From Armatimonadota bacterium (GTDB taxonomy: Bacteria > Armatimonadota > Fimbriimonadia > Fimbriimonadales > Fimbriimonadaceae), in the NCBI GenBank assembly GCA_029781035.1, contig JAKOXK010000071.1, positions 1 to 50,191 of the forward strand: 50,191 nt of DNA, read 5' to 3'. Positions 33,304 to 38,973 of the stretch are shown one piece after another; position 1 is the first letter of the stretch, and each line of letters opens with the position of its first letter. The translations under genes and the position numbers were made by a program. The notes under the pieces were generated by a model. The model saw only the letters and a program-made list of their open reading frames with translations, searched no databases and was not told the DNA's origin.

Positions 33304-36300
33304 TCAGCTGAAGAACCCCACGCTCCGGGCCAAGCGGACGTCGTCACCGCCAGTCAGCTCGTCGAGGTCTTTCAAGGTCAGTTCCCTGTTCTGCGCGTCT
33401 TCGACCGACACCTTCAGACCGAGTGAACGCAACTCGTTCACCAGAATCTTGAAGGATTCGGGAATGCCAGGTTCAGAGATCGGCTCGCCCTTCACGATCG
33501 ATTCATAGGCTTTGACGCGGCCCATGACGTCGTCGGACTTGATCGTCAGCAACTCTTGCAGCGTATAAGCAGCTCCGTAGGCCTCGAGCGCCCACACCTC
33601 CATTTCACCGAACCTCTGGCCGCCGAACTGCGCCTTGCCACCCAAGGGCTGCTGGGTCACAAGCGAGTAGGGGCCGATCGACCGGGCATGGATTTTCTCG
33701 TCTGCCAAGTGCTCAAGCTTCAACATATAGATGACGCCGACTGTCATCGGATTCGGAAGTTGGTCGCCCGTCACACCGTCTCGGAGCACCGACTTGCACG
33801 TGTGGGGGTCGAGTCCCGCCCGGGCAAACACGTTCTGCTGGATCGAACTGAGGATTCCGGCGTAGACCGAGTCTGCCGCTTTGTACGGTGGCCCCGACAC
33901 ACTCGGCTCTTCGGGCACCCATTCCTCGACGTCGATGTTCAGGAGATCCTCCATCTTTTTCGTGGAGGGTGCGGACACGATGCGGCTGATCCGCTCCAGG
34001 TTGTCTTGATCCAGGCTGCGGAGCTTGTCTTCGACTTGTCCCAGCATGGACTCCAGCGAACTGCCAGGCTTGAACCTCAGGCCCATGGCAAGCTCTGAGT
34101 TGACGTAAGCCTGGAGCGACTGCGATCGCAGGTGCTCGGCGAGCCGGTCGACTTCGTGCAAGATCTCTTCTTCGGTCGCGCCTTCGAACGCCGGGCACTC
34201 GTACCGCACACCCAGGTGCCTGCCCACGTATCCGAGGTGGGTCTCGAGGATCTGGCCGATGTTCATGCGGCTTGGAACGCCCAAGGGGTTGAGGACCACG
34301 TCGACGGGGGTGCCGTCGGCCAACATCGGCATGTCTTCCACCGGCATGATCCGGCTGATGACACCCTTGTTGCCGTGACGTCCCGCCATCTTGTCGCCGA
34401 CCATGATCTTGCGCTTCTGGGCGACGTGCACCTGCACGCTCATGTTCGTGCCTGCGGGCAGTTCGTCACCGGCGATCTGTAACAGCGGGCTGTCGCACCG
34501 GTCGCACACGAGCCGCTCGCGCTTCTTCGACTCCTTGTACATATGTCCGCAACCGGTGCAGTTGTACTTGTACCGACTGAAGACCTTCACGTCCACGACC
34601 GTGCCTTTCTCGCCGTGAGGCAGCCTGAGCGAAACGTCCCGCGTCTCCTCCGCCTTCTTACCAAAGATCGCGATGATCAGCCGCTCTTCAGCCGTCATCT
34701 CCGTCTGCCCCTTCGGGGCGACCTTACCGACCAAGATGTCTTCCGGCCGCACTTCGGCGCCAACTCGGATGATGCCGTTCTCGTCGAGATCCTTGAGGGC
34801 GTCCTCGCCAACATTGGGAATGTCGCGCGTGATTTCTTCTGGACCGAGCTTGGTGTCCACGGCTTCAGTCTCGTAGCGCTCGATATGAATCGAGGTGTAG
34901 ACGTCGTCCTTCACCAAACGTTCGCTCAGGATGATCGCGTCTTCATAGTTGTAGCCGAGCCACGGCATGAAGGCGACCAAGATGTTCTTCCCGAGCGCGA
35001 GCCGTCCGTCGTCGCATGTTGCTCCGTCAGCCAGCGGATCACCCTTGAGCACCTTTTGGCCAGGAACCACGATGGGCCGGTGCGAGAAGCAGGTCGTCTT
35101 GTTGGACTGGAACATGTGGAGGAGCTTGTACTTGTCCTCGGTCCCATCCTCTGCCTCAATCCGGATCTCCTTGCTCGTGACATAGGTCACGACTCCGTCC
35201 CTTCTGGCGCGCACAGAAGCGCCCGAATCGATGGCCGCCCGGGCTTCATGTCCCGTGCCGACAACTGGGGCGTCGCTGCGCAGGCACGGAACGGCCTGTC
35301 GTTGCATGTTCGCGCCCATCAAAGCGCGGTTCGCGTCGTCGTTTTCGAGGAACGGGATCAACGAGGTAGCTACCGAGATGATCTGCACAGGCGACACGTC
35401 CATGAGGTCGACGCGGCTGCGCGGAACGGTCGGGTACTGGGCGCCACCAAACTGCTTGTCGCCGCCCGGACAGCGGACGTTGACTTGGTCGGCAACGATG
35501 CGGTTGTTTTCATCGACTCTGGTGTCGGCCGGGGCGATGCGCATCGTGTAGTCGTCATTGGCCGTCAGGTAGACGATCTCATCCTGAACGACGCCGTCCA
35601 CGACCTTCCGATACGGCGTCATGATGAACCCGAACTCGTCGACTCGGGCATGGGTCGTGAGCTGGCTGATGAGGCCGATGTTCGGACCTTCAGGAGTTTC
35701 GATCGGGCAGATACGGCCGTAGTGCGACCGGTGGACATCGCGCACTTCGAGCTTGGCGCTCGTTCTCTGCAGTCCACCCGGGCCGAGGCTGGAAAGACGT
35801 CGCTTGTTCGTCAACTCGCTCAGCGGGTTCGTCTGATCCATGAACGTGCTGAGCTGGTTGCTGCTGAAGAAGCTCTTGATGCTCGCGCTGACCGGCTTGA
35901 CGCTGAGAATGATGCTTGGCAGGAGGTTGTCCTGGTCGGCACTGGTCATCCTCTCCCGAGCGACCTTCTCCATGCGGACGAAGCCAAGCCGCAATTGGCT
36001 GGCCAAGAGCTCGCCGATGGACCGCACTCGCTTGTTCTTCAAGTCGTCGATGTCGTCGTGCTCGACCTCTTTTCGAAGGTACGGGCCCATGGCCATGATC
36101 GTTCCCCACAGGTCCTCGCTCGTCAGGTTTCGGATGTTGAGGGGGACGTTCAGGCCGAGACGCTGGTTCAGGAATCGGCGACCCACCTTGCCGAGATCGT
36201 ACCGGCGCATGTCGAAGAACAAGCTGAACACCAGTTGCTTGGCGGCGTCTTCGTTGGCAGCCTCGCCGGGTCGCATCTGCTTGTAGATGCCCAAGATCGC

Positions 36301-37320
36301 CTCGCGGGTGCTGGCGGTCTGGTCGGCGGCCAAAGTCGCCTCGACGAGTTCTTCGAGGGCAAGCACCTTGATCGAGACCAGCCCCAGAGACTGGATCTTG
36401 ACCGCCGTGTCCTGATCGATGCGGTGCATCGCCTGGACGACCGTCTTCGTGCCGTCTTTAATGTCCTCGAGAGGACGCTTGCCGACCAGGTCGTCTGCGA
36501 CGGGGCTTTCGAGCGTCTGCTCTTCGCCAAAGGCCCAGTACATCTCTTCGGTCGTTCCGAGAGGTGTCTCGGTCAGTGCCTCGATCTGCTTCTGCTCGTC
36601 CGTGAGAGAGTCCAAGATCGCCTTGGTCACGATCGCGCCCTTGTCAATCAGGACTTCGCCAGTGTCCGGGTCAGCAAGAGGCTCGGCGAGTTTCTTGTGA
36701 TAGGCCTCGCCCAACTTGCGGGTCTGTCGGTCTCGCCCCTTCTCAAAACCGTGCAACGCTTTGATCAGTTGAGTGATCGGCAGCTTCTTCGACTGTGAGA
36801 TCTGAGTGCGAACGACGCCGTTCGAGTCGTTCTCGATCTCCAACCACGGCCCTTCGCTTGGGATGATGCGGGCGCGGACGATCATCTGCATGGACGTGTC
36901 CACGTCTTCTTCAAAGTACAGCCCAGGAGAACGGCTCAGCTGGCTGACAATGACCCGTTCGCGTCCATTGATCACGAAAGTGCCGTTGTCGGTCATCAAA
37001 GGCAGGTCGCCCAAATAGACTTCGGACTCGATGACTTCCCTGTCCCGGCCGCCCAACCTGACGATGGCTTTGATCGGCGCCTCGAACGTCAGGTCGCGGT
37101 CCCTGCAGTCATCGATCCCATACTTGGGTTCGCCGAGCACGAAGTCCGTGAATTCGATATAGTTGGTCTGGGTGAAGTCCCAGATTGGGCTGAACGTTTC
37201 GAAGAGTTCGGGCAGTCCTTCTTCTAGAAACCACTTGTAGCTGTTGAGTTGGAGTTCAATGAGGTTTGGCACCTCGAGCGATCGACCGATACGCTTCGAG
37301 GAGGGTTGGATGACTCGCAT
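33304..37320 (-). CDS. rpoB: DNA-directed RNA polymerase subunit beta
   Basis: A 1338-residue subunit from ATG 37320, which has GGTGGA in front. An ATG at 37347 overlaps the -10 box and is unlikely to be used. Recognisable blocks include PNLIELQLNSYKWFLEEGL at the N-terminus, RSPGLYFEEDVD, the rifampicin region around FMDQTNPLSELTNKRRLSSL and RDVHRSHYGRICPIETPEGP. Further on come GYNYEDAIILSERLVKDD, GRHGNKGVISRI and the C-terminal QPLGGKAQFGGQRFGEMEVW. A moderate insertion in the beta2 lobe (LADPDTGEVLIDKGAIVTKA region) resembles those of several other phyla. It is not preceded by rplJ-rplL as in most bacteria but has its own promoter. Confidence 0.98.
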   Translation of the reverse strand: MRVIQPSSKRIGRSLEVPNLIELQLNSYKWFLEEGLPELFETFSPIWDFTQTNYIEFTDFVLGEPKYGIDDCRDRDLTFEAPIKAIVRLGGRDREVIESEVYLGDLPLMTDNGTFVINGRERVIVSQLSRSPGLYFEEDVDTSMQMIVRARIIPSEGPWLEIENDSNGVVRTQISQSKKLPITQLIKALHGFEKGRDRQTRKLGEAYHKKLAEPLADPDTGEVLIDKGAIVTKAILDSLTDEQKQIEALTETPLGTTEEMYWAFGEEQTLESPVADDLVGKRPLEDIKDGTKTVVQAMHRIDQDTAVKIQSLGLVSIKVLALEELVEATLAADQTASTREAILGIYKQMRPGEAANEDAAKQLVFSLFFDMRRYDLGKVGRRFLNQRLGLNVPLNIRNLTSEDLWGTIMAMGPYLRKEVEHDDIDDLKNKRVRSIGELLASQLRLGFVRMEKVARERMTSADQDNLLPSIILSVKPVSASIKSFFSSNQLSTFMDQTNPLSELTNKRRLSSLGPGGLQRTSAKLEVRDVHRSHYGRICPIETPEGPNIGLISQLTTHARVDEFGFIMTPYRKVVDGVVQDEIVYLTANDDYTMRIAPADTRVDENNRIVADQVNVRCPGGDKQFGGAQYPTVPRSRVDLMDVSPVQIISVATSLIPFLENDDANRALMGANMQRQAVPCLRSDAPVVGTGHEARAAIDSGASVRARRDGVVTYVTSKEIRIEAEDGTEDKYKLLHMFQSNKTTCFSHRPIVVPGQKVLKGDPLADGATCDDGRLALGKNILVAFMPWLGYNYEDAIILSERLVKDDVYTSIHIERYETEAVDTKLGPEEITRDIPNVGEDALKDLDENGIIRVGAEVRPEDILVGKVAPKGQTEMTAEERLIIAIFGKKAEETRDVSLRLPHGEKGTVVDVKVFSRYKYNCTGCGHMYKESKKRERLVCDRCDSPLLQIAGDELPAGTNMSVQVHVAQKRKIMVGDKMAGRHGNKGVISRIMPVEDMPMLADGTPVDVVLNPLGVPSRMNIGQILETHLGYVGRHLGVRYECPAFEGATEEEILHEVDRLAEHLRSQSLQAYVNSELAMGLRFKPGSSLESMLGQVEDKLRSLDQDNLERISRIVSAPSTKKMEDLLNIDVEEWVPEEPSVSGPPYKAADSVYAGILSSIQQNVFARAGLDPHTCKSVLRDGVTGDQLPNPMTVGVIYMLKLEHLADEKIHARSIGPYSLVTQQPLGGKAQFGGQRFGEMEVWALEAYGAAYTLQELLTIKSDDVMGRVKAYESIVKGEPISEPGIPESFKILVNELRSLGLKVSVEDAQNRELTLKDLDELTGGDDVRLARSVGFFS

Positions 37321-37345
37321 AAGTAGTCCACCGGGGGGAACGTTC

Positions 37346-37375
37346 ATTCTATCCCTCCCAGCACTCCAGGAACAA
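37346..37375 (-). promoter_or_regulatory. rpoB promoter
   Basis: On the minus strand, TTGTTC (37370-37375), an 18-bp spacer and TAGAAT (37346-37351). Transcription should start near 37339, giving a leader of about 20 nt with GGTGGA before ATG 37320. It places the upstream ATG 37347 within the -10 element. Confidence 0.65.
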
Positions 37376-37510
37376 GGCTACGCGGGACTTTGAAGCGCGC
37401 CTTGTATCAACTTTTCTGTGGACTGGGTCTTAAGTCCTCTCCTGATCTCTGTCACAGACATCGGCGAACGATGCTTCGGCTCGTGCATGGTCTCCAAAGA
37501 CGGTATTCCG

Positions 37511-38098
37511 TCACTTCCCGCCGTTAGAGGATTCCTGCTTTCTTGTAGCTGTGTACAACGATCGGCCCAGTGACCGGAACATTGCTTCGCACAAGTGTCG
37601 GTCGTTATAGCCCGCCAGTTTCGTCACGTGCAGCGAGAATCGCCCAGCGCACACGAGCGTTTCGAAGAACTCGCGGACGCTTTCGGTCGCGACCTCGGCG
37701 ATCCAGTCTCGTTTGAACTCGACGCCCCATCCCAGGTGCGCCCTCGCCCGGAGGTCGACCGCGCACATAACGAGGGCGTCGGCCGAAGGCACATGGGCCG
37801 ATCCGGCACTCGCCACCGGATCGGAATCCTCCAGGGCTGCGGTCAAGGCGATCCCGAGTGCCGTGCCGACGTCCTCCATGACAAGGTGGTCCTGGATGCC
37901 GACTTCCGCCTCAACCGAGACGCCGAAGTCGAGACTTCCGTAGGTCGCGACGTCGCGAAGCATCTCGTCGAAGGTGGCAAAGCCCGTGGCCACGTCACAC
38001 CTGGAACCTCCGTCCAAATCGAGGACGAGATGGACTCTTGAGTTCTCGGTCTCCCGATCCAACTCGGCATACCGGACGTTGCGCGCTCCTTTGCTCAT
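37511..38098 (-). CDS. HisB-like (imidazoleglycerol-phosphate dehydratase fold) protein with altered metal site
   Basis: A 195-residue protein with full-length IGPD layout: RETENSRVHLVLDLDG at 15-30, FDEMLRDVATYGSLDFGV at 43-60, HLVMEDVGTALGIAL at 71-85, VREFFETLVCAGRFSLHV at 141-158 and NDRHLCEAMFRSLGRSL at 165-181. Three positions that are metal-binding His in genuine HisB are changed: E45 for the His of FDHML, L72 for the second His of HHTVED and R167 for the first His of DHHxxEA. H71, E75, H157, H168 and E171 remain. Dehydratase activity is therefore doubtful. No other his genes are near. It precedes rpoB on the same strand by 163 bp. ATG 38098 follows AGGTGAG. Confidence 0.8.
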   Translation of the reverse strand: MSKGARNVRYAELDRETENSRVHLVLDLDGGSRCDVATGFATFDEMLRDVATYGSLDFGVSVEAEVGIQDHLVMEDVGTALGIALTAALEDSDPVASAGSAHVPSADALVMCAVDLRARAHLGWGVEFKRDWIAEVATESVREFFETLVCAGRFSLHVTKLAGYNDRHLCEAMFRSLGRSLYTATRKQESSNGGK

Positions 38099-38172
38099 GG
38101 GGTCTCACCTAGTTTATCGGTCATGACAGGAATTAGTTTCGTCGCAATGCCCAGGGAATCCCAGGTCACCGC

Positions 38173-38973
38173 TTGTATCGAAGCCTGTGGTCGCCGCCAT
38201 GCGTCAATATCCACGTGGTACTGTCGCTTGCCGTTGCCTTGACACTGGCCAACCGAGTTCCGGACCCCTGCCTGCTACTGCACTCGGGACAGAAGGTGCC
38301 CGACAGGGTCAAAGACGTGATCGTGGAGGAGAAAGCCAAGCGGATTGTCGAGACGATGTACGGCACGTACGCCTCGTGCAAGTCTTATTCCGATACGGGA
38401 ACGTCTGACATGGGAAACGCCCATTTGACGTTCGCCACTCGGTACCTGCGGCCGGAGCGACTCTTCTTCGGGTTCACGGCCAAGGGGTTTGCGCGGGACG
38501 GCCGGTTTGTGCTGTGGACGACGGGGGAAAGGAAGCGTATCTTCCAGCCGGGAGTGGACGGTCCCGGATGCTGGGAGGACACCGTGCTCACAAACACGTG
38601 GTACGGCGACGACAAGTCCATGGAGGCCAACGAATCGTTGGGGCTTTCGATCGCGGGCTTCACTGGGATCTCCATGGGGGTCGCGATGGACGTGACGAAC
38701 ATCATCTTCCCCTCGGAAGTCGGGGGGCTTTCGTTGCGGGACATGAAAGACCTGGTCTTCGAGAAGTCGGCCCAAGACCGAGGTGTCCTGTGCGACGTCT
38801 TGTACTCAAGGGAATACTTGACAAGGGCTTGGATCGACAGCTCCCGCCACCTGATGCGACGACTCTCCGAGCAGATTGAGCCTAGTGACCCGAAACAGGT
38901 GACCCTTTTTAACCCGGTCTTGAACCAGCCGGTCAGTGATGCCGACCTGACGTTCCGCCCTCCGCAGTCCTAG
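38173..38973 (+). CDS. Secreted protein of unknown function
   Basis: I do not recognise this family with confidence. The frame encodes 266 residues with a hydrophobic export segment VVLSLAVALTLA near residues 15-26. The start is either TTG 38173 (AGG 7 bp upstream) or GTG 38215. The exported part has alternating beta-type segments (LFFGFTAKGFARDGRFVLW, KRIFQPG, TNTWYGDD) and a late helix, vaguely reminiscent of LolA-like outer-membrane carrier folds; this is a weak impression. Five Cys residues are scattered. It is divergent from the HisB-like gene and convergent with the fucosidase. Confidence 0.5.
   Translation: MYRSLWSPPCVNIHVVLSLAVALTLANRVPDPCLLLHSGQKVPDRVKDVIVEEKAKRIVETMYGTYASCKSYSDTGTSDMGNAHLTFATRYLRPERLFFGFTAKGFARDGRFVLWTTGERKRIFQPGVDGPGCWEDTVLTNTWYGDDKSMEANESLGLSIAGFTGISMGVAMDVTNIIFPSEVGGLSLRDMKDLVFEKSAQDRGVLCDVLYSREYLTRAWIDSSRHLMRRLSEQIEPSDPKQVTLFNPVLNQPVSDADLTFRPPQS

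What the first reader, a model, noticed from the sequence alone, without database searches (positions are those of the whole stretch)
37511..38098. HisB paralogue with three metal-ligand histidines replaced, directly upstream of rpoB
The protein keeps the full IGPD fold length and order, but E45, L72 and R167 stand where catalytic HisB has His in the FDHML, HHxxED and DHHxxEA motifs. No histidine-biosynthesis gene is near. It may be a repurposed, possibly non-catalytic or differently metallated HisB-fold protein, and its position before rpoB is unusual.
Basis: partly seen in the sequence, partly recalled or inferred. Interest (0 to 1): 0.55.

Follow-up and report, generated by a model that had tools for sequence, protein, structure and literature searches.

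The report
Dead histidine enzyme outliving its pathway
The gene is the bacterium's original histidine-making enzyme HisB, which has lost most of its catalytic parts but is still kept as an intact protein, as in several related bacteria that have lost the rest of the pathway, so it may well have a second, non-catalytic job.

Summary
Confirmed: window 37511-38098 (-) encodes an intact HisB-fold protein (Pfam IGPD E 2.7e-37; model pLDDT 93, TM about 0.9 to IGPD crystals). The three lost histidines are exactly the three His ligands of Mn1; the Mn2 ligands remain. E21, D108, H55, R99 and the C-terminal S-T/S-K-G loop are lost too. E21 and the loop are each essential in tested IGPDs (PMC4509728), so it should be dead as a dehydratase. 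The genome has a canonical HisB inside an eight-gene his operon on another contig.
The rpoB position is not unusual: hisB lies there in 26 of 53 family genomes with an ordinary HisB. Of 18 relatives (90% complete or more) without HisG, HisI and full HisD, 12 still keep a HisB. The loop is missing in 18 of 18 orphan or displaced native copies and present in 61 of 61 others. Within the genus the gene is under purifying selection (dN/dS 0.18-0.31).
Best reading: native HisB, orphaned when histidine synthesis was lost, kept as a folded pseudoenzyme; this genome later regained the pathway. The retained role is inferred, and some relatives do without it.

The parts
37511..38098 (-). native HisB (IGPD-fold) pseudoenzyme, 195 aa, with stop codon
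37964..37966 (-). codon of E45 = Mn1 ligand position H47
37883..37885 (-). codon of L72 = Mn1 ligand position H74
37598..37600 (-). codon of R167 = Mn1 ligand position H169
37886..37888 (-). codon of H71 = kept Mn2 ligand H73
37595..37597 (-). codon of H168 = kept Mn2 ligand H170
38042..38044 (-). codon of N19 = catalytic position E21 (note a Glu at the neighbouring residue 18)
37514..37546 (-). C-terminal tail without the S-T/S-K-G C-loop motif
38105..38110 (-). putative ribosome-binding site AGGTGA, six bases before the ATG
   Evidence: read from the sequence; no program tested it
33304..37347 (-). rpoB, next gene downstream on the same strand (163-nt gap)

Best explanation
The gene is the vertically inherited hisB of its family (Fimbriimonadaceae), still in its old place before rpoB. 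When an ancestor lost histidine biosynthesis, hisB was not deleted with the other his genes. Its catalytic parts (C-loop, E21, phosphate site, Mn1 site) were lost while the fold, the Mn2 site and an open frame were kept under purifying selection. It is therefore a HisB pseudoenzyme, retained for a role that needs the folded, probably oligomeric body and not the dehydratase reaction. In the window's genus the lost Mn1 histidines H47 and H169 became acid and Arg, which could form a salt bridge in place of the metal. This genome later gained a foreign his operon that supplies the real HisB. Shown by the data: fold, lost residues, shared place, recurrence, purifying selection, second HisB of other descent. 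Inferred: that the place is ancestral, loss before regain, inactivity of this very protein, the salt bridge, and the retained role.
For: Fold intact: Pfam E 2.7e-37, model pLDDT 93, Foldseek TM 0.90-0.91 and rmsd 1.2-1.7 A to A. thaliana IGPD2 crystals. Catalysis gone: E21N, Mn1 ligands, D108A, R99S, H55Y and no C-loop; E21Q and a C-loop deletion are each inactive in real IGPDs (PMC4509728 passages). Loop present in 61 of 61 ordinary copies and 0 of 18 orphan or displaced native ones; of 20 further copies 17 have it and 3 lack it, two of these from genomes without HisG and HisI (by exclusion). Pathway gone but HisB kept: 12 of 18 genomes. Shared place. Window gene groups with the G001, G003, G010, G027 and G040 native copies (100/98), among the family's native HisBs; operon copies fall elsewhere, 100/100 and 100/99. 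Selection: dN/dS 0.31, 0.18, 0.31 for the three pairs of the genus; a neutral simulation gives mean amino-acid identity 0.22 (maximum 0.30) against 0.64 observed and both frames open in 1 of 1000 runs. Own his operon: HisI, HisG, HisD, aminotransferase, HisB, amidotransferase, two HisA/F proteins.
Against: The gene is absent in 6 of those 18 his-minus genomes, and same-genus G002 (88% complete) shows no HisB in the 732 bases held upstream of its rpoB-linked small gene nor elsewhere, so the role is dispensable. Losses differ between lineages: G023 keeps all four Mn1 ligands and loses H73, E77 and H170, and 6 of 18 orphans still keep 10 or more of 13 active-site residues, G007 all 13. No conserved partner gene outside the old neighbourhood was found. 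dN/dS is higher than in the four ordinary pairs with a usable dS (0.075-0.16), so constraint is relaxed. A Glu stands one residue before position 21. All genomes are assemblies of uneven completeness.
Confidence: 0.55

Rival explanations
1. A slowly decaying relic: hisB survived deletion by chance (small gene before an essential operon) and is on its way out, without function.
For: Absent in 6 of 18 his-minus genomes and apparently in same-genus G002; different residues lost in each lineage; constraint weaker than in ordinary copies; the G037 native copy is 3' truncated.
Against: dN/dS 0.18-0.31 in three genus members that already lack loop and active site, and frames open at a divergence where a neutral model leaves both open in 1 of 1000 runs or fewer; 19 of 26 conserved other positions kept against 5 of 13 active-site positions; orphans kept also in 6 of 15 family genomes where they are not next to rpoB.
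Confidence: 0.2
2. A new enzyme: the HisB fold with a single metal (Mn2 site) now acts on another substrate in the window's clade.
For: In the six copies of the window's clade H73, E77 and H170 are kept at 16 of 18 cells against 6 of 24 for the four Mn1 ligands (counted by hand from the table; residue 145 is Glu in 3 of 6); clade-specific shared states such as Gly or Ser at 99 and Arg at 177 in 5 of 6.
Against: Phosphate and general-acid residues and the closing loop are gone; other orphan lineages lose the other metal site, so no common new active site is seen; no new metabolic neighbourhood found.
Confidence: 0.15
3. A DNA-level role: the sequence is kept as leader or promoter region of rpoB.
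For: Upstream of rpoB on the same strand, in some cases with small genes between, in 9 of 15 orphan or displaced copies of the family.
Against: Codon positions 1 and 2 change less than position 3 (0.29, 0.19, 0.42 for the closest pair), which is protein-level constraint; 6 of 15 family orphans lie away from rpoB; no sigma-70-like promoter found in 37200-38400, though other promoter types were not sought.
Confidence: 0.04
4. Still an IGP dehydratase with an odd active site, a spare HisB.
For: Family fold and Mn2 site kept.
Against: E21 and C-loop are each essential in tested IGPDs and both absent; same-genus G001 and G003 carry it without HisD, HisG, HisI or a strong HisA/F match.
Confidence: 0.03

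Closest known systems
Imidazoleglycerol-phosphate dehydratase (HisB/IGPD; Pfam PF00475; A. thaliana IGPD2 4mu3, IGPD1 2f1d)
   Same: Full-length fold, order of elements, Mn2 positions, E173, R121, structural core
   Different: Mn1 histidines, E21, H55, R99, D108 and C-loop missing; not in a his operon
Ordinary native HisB of other genomes of the family (for example L025 of G045)
   Same: Nearest ordinary relatives in the tree, 43% identity over the length for L025 (43-45% for the four compared), same place before rpoB in G045
   Different: Complete active site and C-loop
Pseudoenzymes in general (catalytically dead members of enzyme families kept for binding or scaffold roles; recalled, not from a call)
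   Same: Fold kept, catalytic residues lost, purifying selection remains
   Different: No such HisB appeared in the searches (open-licence library only)
HisB of the genome's own his operon (contig C76, L001/L052)
   Same: Same family
   Different: Canonical active site; groups with the G015 and G008 operon copies (100/100); 80.8 bits to the window protein, which scores 426.7 with itself

Membership tests
IGPD/HisB protein family (fold) | Match to PF00475 over its whole length above the curated cut-off | tested here: met
   128.5 bits against cut-off 27, profile 1-144 of 144; TM about 0.9 to IGPD crystals
Functional IGP dehydratase | Mn1 site: H47, H74, H169, E173 | tested here: not met
   E, L, R, E (ligands from PMC4509728 Table 2)
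Functional IGP dehydratase | Mn2 site: H73, E77, residue 145, H170 | tested here: met
   H, E, E, H; residue 145 is His in A. thaliana and Glu in 52 of 60 comparison copies
Functional IGP dehydratase | Catalytic E21 | tested here: not met
   Asn at the aligned place, Glu one residue before it; E21Q is inactive
Functional IGP dehydratase | C-loop with S-T/S-K-G, essential for catalysis | tested here: not met
   Absent; 61 of 61 ordinary copies have it, 0 of 18 orphan or displaced copies; deletion inactive in P. furiosus IGPD
Functional IGP dehydratase | NCBIfam HisB equivalog cut-offs | tested here: not met
   13 models matched, best 145.8 bits, all below their cut-offs of 189-443; ordinary copies of the family were not run as a control
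Functional IGP dehydratase | Dehydration of IGP, complementation of a hisB mutant | not testable with these tools
   needs bench work
Pseudoenzyme | Purifying selection after loss of catalysis | tested here: met
   dN/dS 0.18-0.31 in three pairs within the genus, all three members already without active site and loop; neutral simulation. Pairwise NG86 only, no branch test
Pseudoenzyme | A demonstrated non-catalytic role | not testable with these tools
   no partner or phenotype known

The most novel reading that the evidence does not exclude
HisB of the Fimbriimonadales has a second, non-catalytic function that outlives histidine biosynthesis. Each time a lineage lost the pathway, HisB could be kept as a scaffold or binding protein, its catalytic loop and metal sites eroding in lineage-specific ways; in the window's genus one metal site may have been replaced by an acid-Arg pair. 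Ordinary HisB of these bacteria would then be a moonlighting protein today.
Probability: 0.35. Interest if true: 0.7.

Novelty: new variant of a known kind. Interest (0 to 1): 0.5.

Why it matters
HisB is known as an enzyme of histidine synthesis (recalled). Repeated retention of a HisB without its catalytic parts after the pathway has gone is a natural experiment that points to a second role. It also warns annotators: in these genomes a PF00475 match does not mean that histidine can be made, and the S-T/S-K-G loop separated the two kinds in the copies (61 of 61 against 0 of 18).

Tried and rejected
Rejected: 'unusual insertion before rpoB'. Rejected for lack of power: a functional link to the small membrane-protein genes (c3) that follow hisB in many relatives; c3 genes stay before rpoB in HisB-less G013, G020, G044 and G002 and occur in 80 of 101 genomes. 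No partner: nine neighbour proteins of orphans away from rpoB, at five loci, gave EF-G, MFS transporter, beta-lactamase-like, ferritin-like, DXP synthase and carboxyltransferase matches and three without a match (a tenth protein in that call was a c3 protein, no match). No HisB remnant in 13 stretches upstream of rpoB where none was found by profile: one tblastn hit in all at E up to 1 (E 0.97, 28 aa, in L081 several kb from rpoB). YN00 failed with a numerical error, so only NG86 values are given; two of nine pairs had no usable dS. Two moonlighting papers were checked (passages): they mention a hisB deletion as a selection strain, not roles of HisB.

Rows moved or left out: G016 (89% complete) was counted with the orphans in the residue table (19 rows against 60) and with the ordinary copies in the loop count (18 against 61), because it keeps the loop and has a strong HisA/F match although HisD, HisG and HisI were not found; it has E173I and K177R. 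G085 (65% complete; HisD, HisG and HisI not found) is among the ordinary copies. The A. thaliana row is the E21Q mutant chain and was not counted. G017 ends in VSKG, a near miss of the motif. G058 has two ordinary copies and G084 two fragments. G037 (87% complete) does not fit neatly: no hisB was found in its his operon stretch, and its native copy keeps all 14 residues of the table but is 3' truncated without the loop. The 53 genomes are the 55 of the family with an ordinary HisB less G038 and G117 (no rpoB match); they include G016, G037 and G058.

Full report
Observation. The ORF at 37511-38098 on the minus strand encodes 195 aa, with ATG at 38098 and AGGTGA six bases before it. It matches Pfam IGPD over the full profile (E 2.7e-37) and IGPD crystal structures by sequence (best E 1.6e-29). 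In the ligand table of Bisson et al. 2015 (PMC4509728; passages seen) Mn1 is held by H47, H74, H169 and E173, and Mn2 by H73, E77, H145 and H170. The window protein has E, L, R, E at the Mn1 positions and H, E, E, H at the Mn2 positions. Position 145 is Glu in 52 of 60 comparison copies. So one metal site has lost all its histidines and the other is whole by the family's standard.

More is lost. At the catalytic position E21 there is Asn (a Glu stands one residue before), at D108 Ala, at R99 Ser, at H55 Tyr and at K177 Arg. The C-terminal S-T/S-K-G loop is missing. In A. thaliana IGPD2 the E21Q mutant is inactive, and a C-loop deletion of the P. furiosus enzyme shows no activity above background. 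All 60 comparison copies keep E21, H47, H73, H74, E77, R99, D108, R121, H169, H170, E173 and K177. That this very protein is inactive is inference from these facts.

The genome. A second HisB with a canonical active site lies at C76:14045-14476, in a run HisI - HisG - HisD - aminotransferase - HisB - amidotransferase - two HisA/F proteins. HisE and the phosphatase step were not sought. The family name Fimbriimonadaceae (phylum Armatimonadota) is inferred: contigs of same-genus G003 and same-family G040 have the same lengths as named records (Armatimonadetes bacterium SZAS-3 and a Fimbriimonadaceae bacterium).

Relatives. PF00475 was found in 84 of 101 related genomes and in 94 of 113 of the order. 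HisD, HisG and HisA/F were sought in the same 101 and HisI in the 113 of the order. Eighteen genomes of the order at 90% completeness or more have no HisG, no HisI and no HisD above 100 bits; G020, G044 and G074 have only weak or partial HisD matches (40-61 bits). The best HisA/F match in any of the 18 is E 3.3e-18 (G074), the next 9.8e-8, against E below 1e-60 in ordinary genomes such as G045 or G009. Twelve of the 18 keep a HisB (G001, G003, G005, G007, G012, G017, G022, G023, G027, G046, G064, G074) and six do not (G013, G020, G031, G044, G049, G066). I made these sets by comparing the lists by hand; genomes that a call left unlisted as 'more without a match' were placed by exclusion. HisC and HisH were not tested in relatives. 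Seven genomes (G000, G008, G010, G015, G040, G068, G070) carry a divergent native copy and a second, canonical copy.

Loop and active site. In 79 copies taken out for comparison, the S-T/S-K-G loop is present in 61 of 61 ordinary copies (the seven operon copies included) and in 0 of 18 orphan or displaced native copies (11 sole copies of his-minus genomes and 7 displaced ones). Twenty further copies were then fetched: 17 have the loop and 3 lack it: G074 and G078 (no HisG, no HisI by exclusion) and G037, an exception described under Tried and rejected. G007 keeps all 13 conserved active-site residues and has lost only the loop; six of the 18 orphans keep 10 or more of 13. Of positions conserved in at least 95% of ordinary copies the window protein keeps 5 of 13 active-site ones and 19 of 26 others.

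Tree and place. In an 80-row maximum-likelihood tree (midpoint root, bootstrap not fully settled) the window copy groups with the copies of G001, G003, G010, G027 and G040 (100/98), among the native HisBs of the family. Orphans of a second family (G064, G068, G070) group with each other (100/92) and with the ordinary copy G072 (100/89). The operon copies form two clades, G000-G015-G008 (100/100) and G010-G040-G068-G070 (100/99), away from the native ones. Horizontal gain, perhaps twice, is my inference; the two clades were not tested against one. The rpoB domain match lies about 3.3-6.2 kb downstream of hisB on the same strand in 26 of 53 family genomes with an ordinary HisB (9 far on the same contig, 18 on another contig, some of these because of fragmentation), and 2.9-5.5 kb downstream in 9 of 15 orphan or displaced copies of the family. 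In the other 6 of 15 no HisB profile match was found in the stretch held upstream of rpoB, so retention does not depend on rpoB. That this place is ancestral is inferred from its spread.

Selection. Pairwise NG86 within the genus gives dN/dS 0.27/0.88, 0.39/2.11 and 0.32/1.06; differences at codon positions 1, 2, 3 for the closest pair are 0.29, 0.19, 0.42. Seven of nine pairs gave a usable dS; the four ordinary ones give 0.075-0.16. A neutral simulation of substitutions (no indels; assumed G+C 0.65 and a twofold transition bias) at the observed dS leaves mean identity 0.22 (maximum 0.30 in 1000 runs) against 0.64 observed, and both frames open in 1 of 1000; for the two more distant pairs in 0 of 1000. 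All three genus members already lack the loop and the active site, so the constraint is most simply dated after catalysis was lost.

Mechanism. What stays conserved in at least 85% of the orphans is R11, D31, G32, T40, G41, D46, L49, G84, L111, F146, H159, E173, F176 and A186 (A. thaliana numbering), mostly not active-site positions. Different lineages lose different metal sites: the window's clade loses Mn1, while G023 keeps all four Mn1 ligands and loses H73, E77 and H170. This fits a role that needs the folded body, perhaps an oligomer, and not a common new reaction. IGPD is a 24-mer with two metals whose ligands come from two chains. In G000, G001 and G003 position 47 is acidic and 169 is Arg; both residues bind the same metal in IGPD, so a salt bridge in its place is geometrically plausible. 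These three are close relatives and not independent, and no complex was modelled.

Against this reading. Same-genus G002 (88% complete) has no HisB match and none in the 732 bases left upstream of its rpoB-linked small gene, and six his-minus genomes lack it; the role is dispensable. No partner is known.

Literature. The held open-licence library was searched for pseudoenzyme with imidazoleglycerol (0 papers), the enzyme name with 'catalytically inactive' (1 unrelated), Fimbriimonadaceae, Fimbriimonadales, Fimbriimonas or Armatimonadota with histidine or auxotrophy terms (0, 0, 1 and 0 papers), hisB with gene-loss terms (1 paper), hisB with moonlighting and the enzyme name with paralog (21 papers, 15 listed). 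In the titles and abstract starts listed I saw no description of such a HisB. Three papers were opened, passages only: PMC4509728, PMC5121330 and PMC4941109. Subscription papers were not searched.

Noticed in passing
L021:845-1394, L034:9256-9549, L044:10951-11806 and others (alignment A1): A family of small proteins (about 90-110 aa, one hydrophobic segment followed by what looks like a coiled coil, motif around IPIVAILT-HQRKMAE), one to three in tandem, follows hisB or hisA in many relatives, also outside the order (G091, G095, G100), and precedes rpoB in this family. The one member scanned has no Pfam match; found in 80 of 101 genomes.
   Followed up: partly
L202:2900-3442 (G037 C40) and L201 (G037 C142): No hisB was found in the his operon stretch of G037; its native hisB keeps all catalytic residues of the table but stops early without the C-loop and runs into a small membrane-protein gene.
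   Followed up: partly
L052:7430-13672 (G000 C76) and operon copies of G008, G010, G015, G040, G068, G070: His gene clusters whose HisB falls outside the family's native clade, in two groups: possibly two gains of histidine synthesis in lineages that had lost it.
   Followed up: partly
G020:C1:2736438-2736908 and G044:C1:2586698-2587171: Two his-minus genomes carry a weak, partial HisD match (about 61 bits) in a 407-aa frame: possibly another protein of a lost pathway kept for other use.
   Followed up: no
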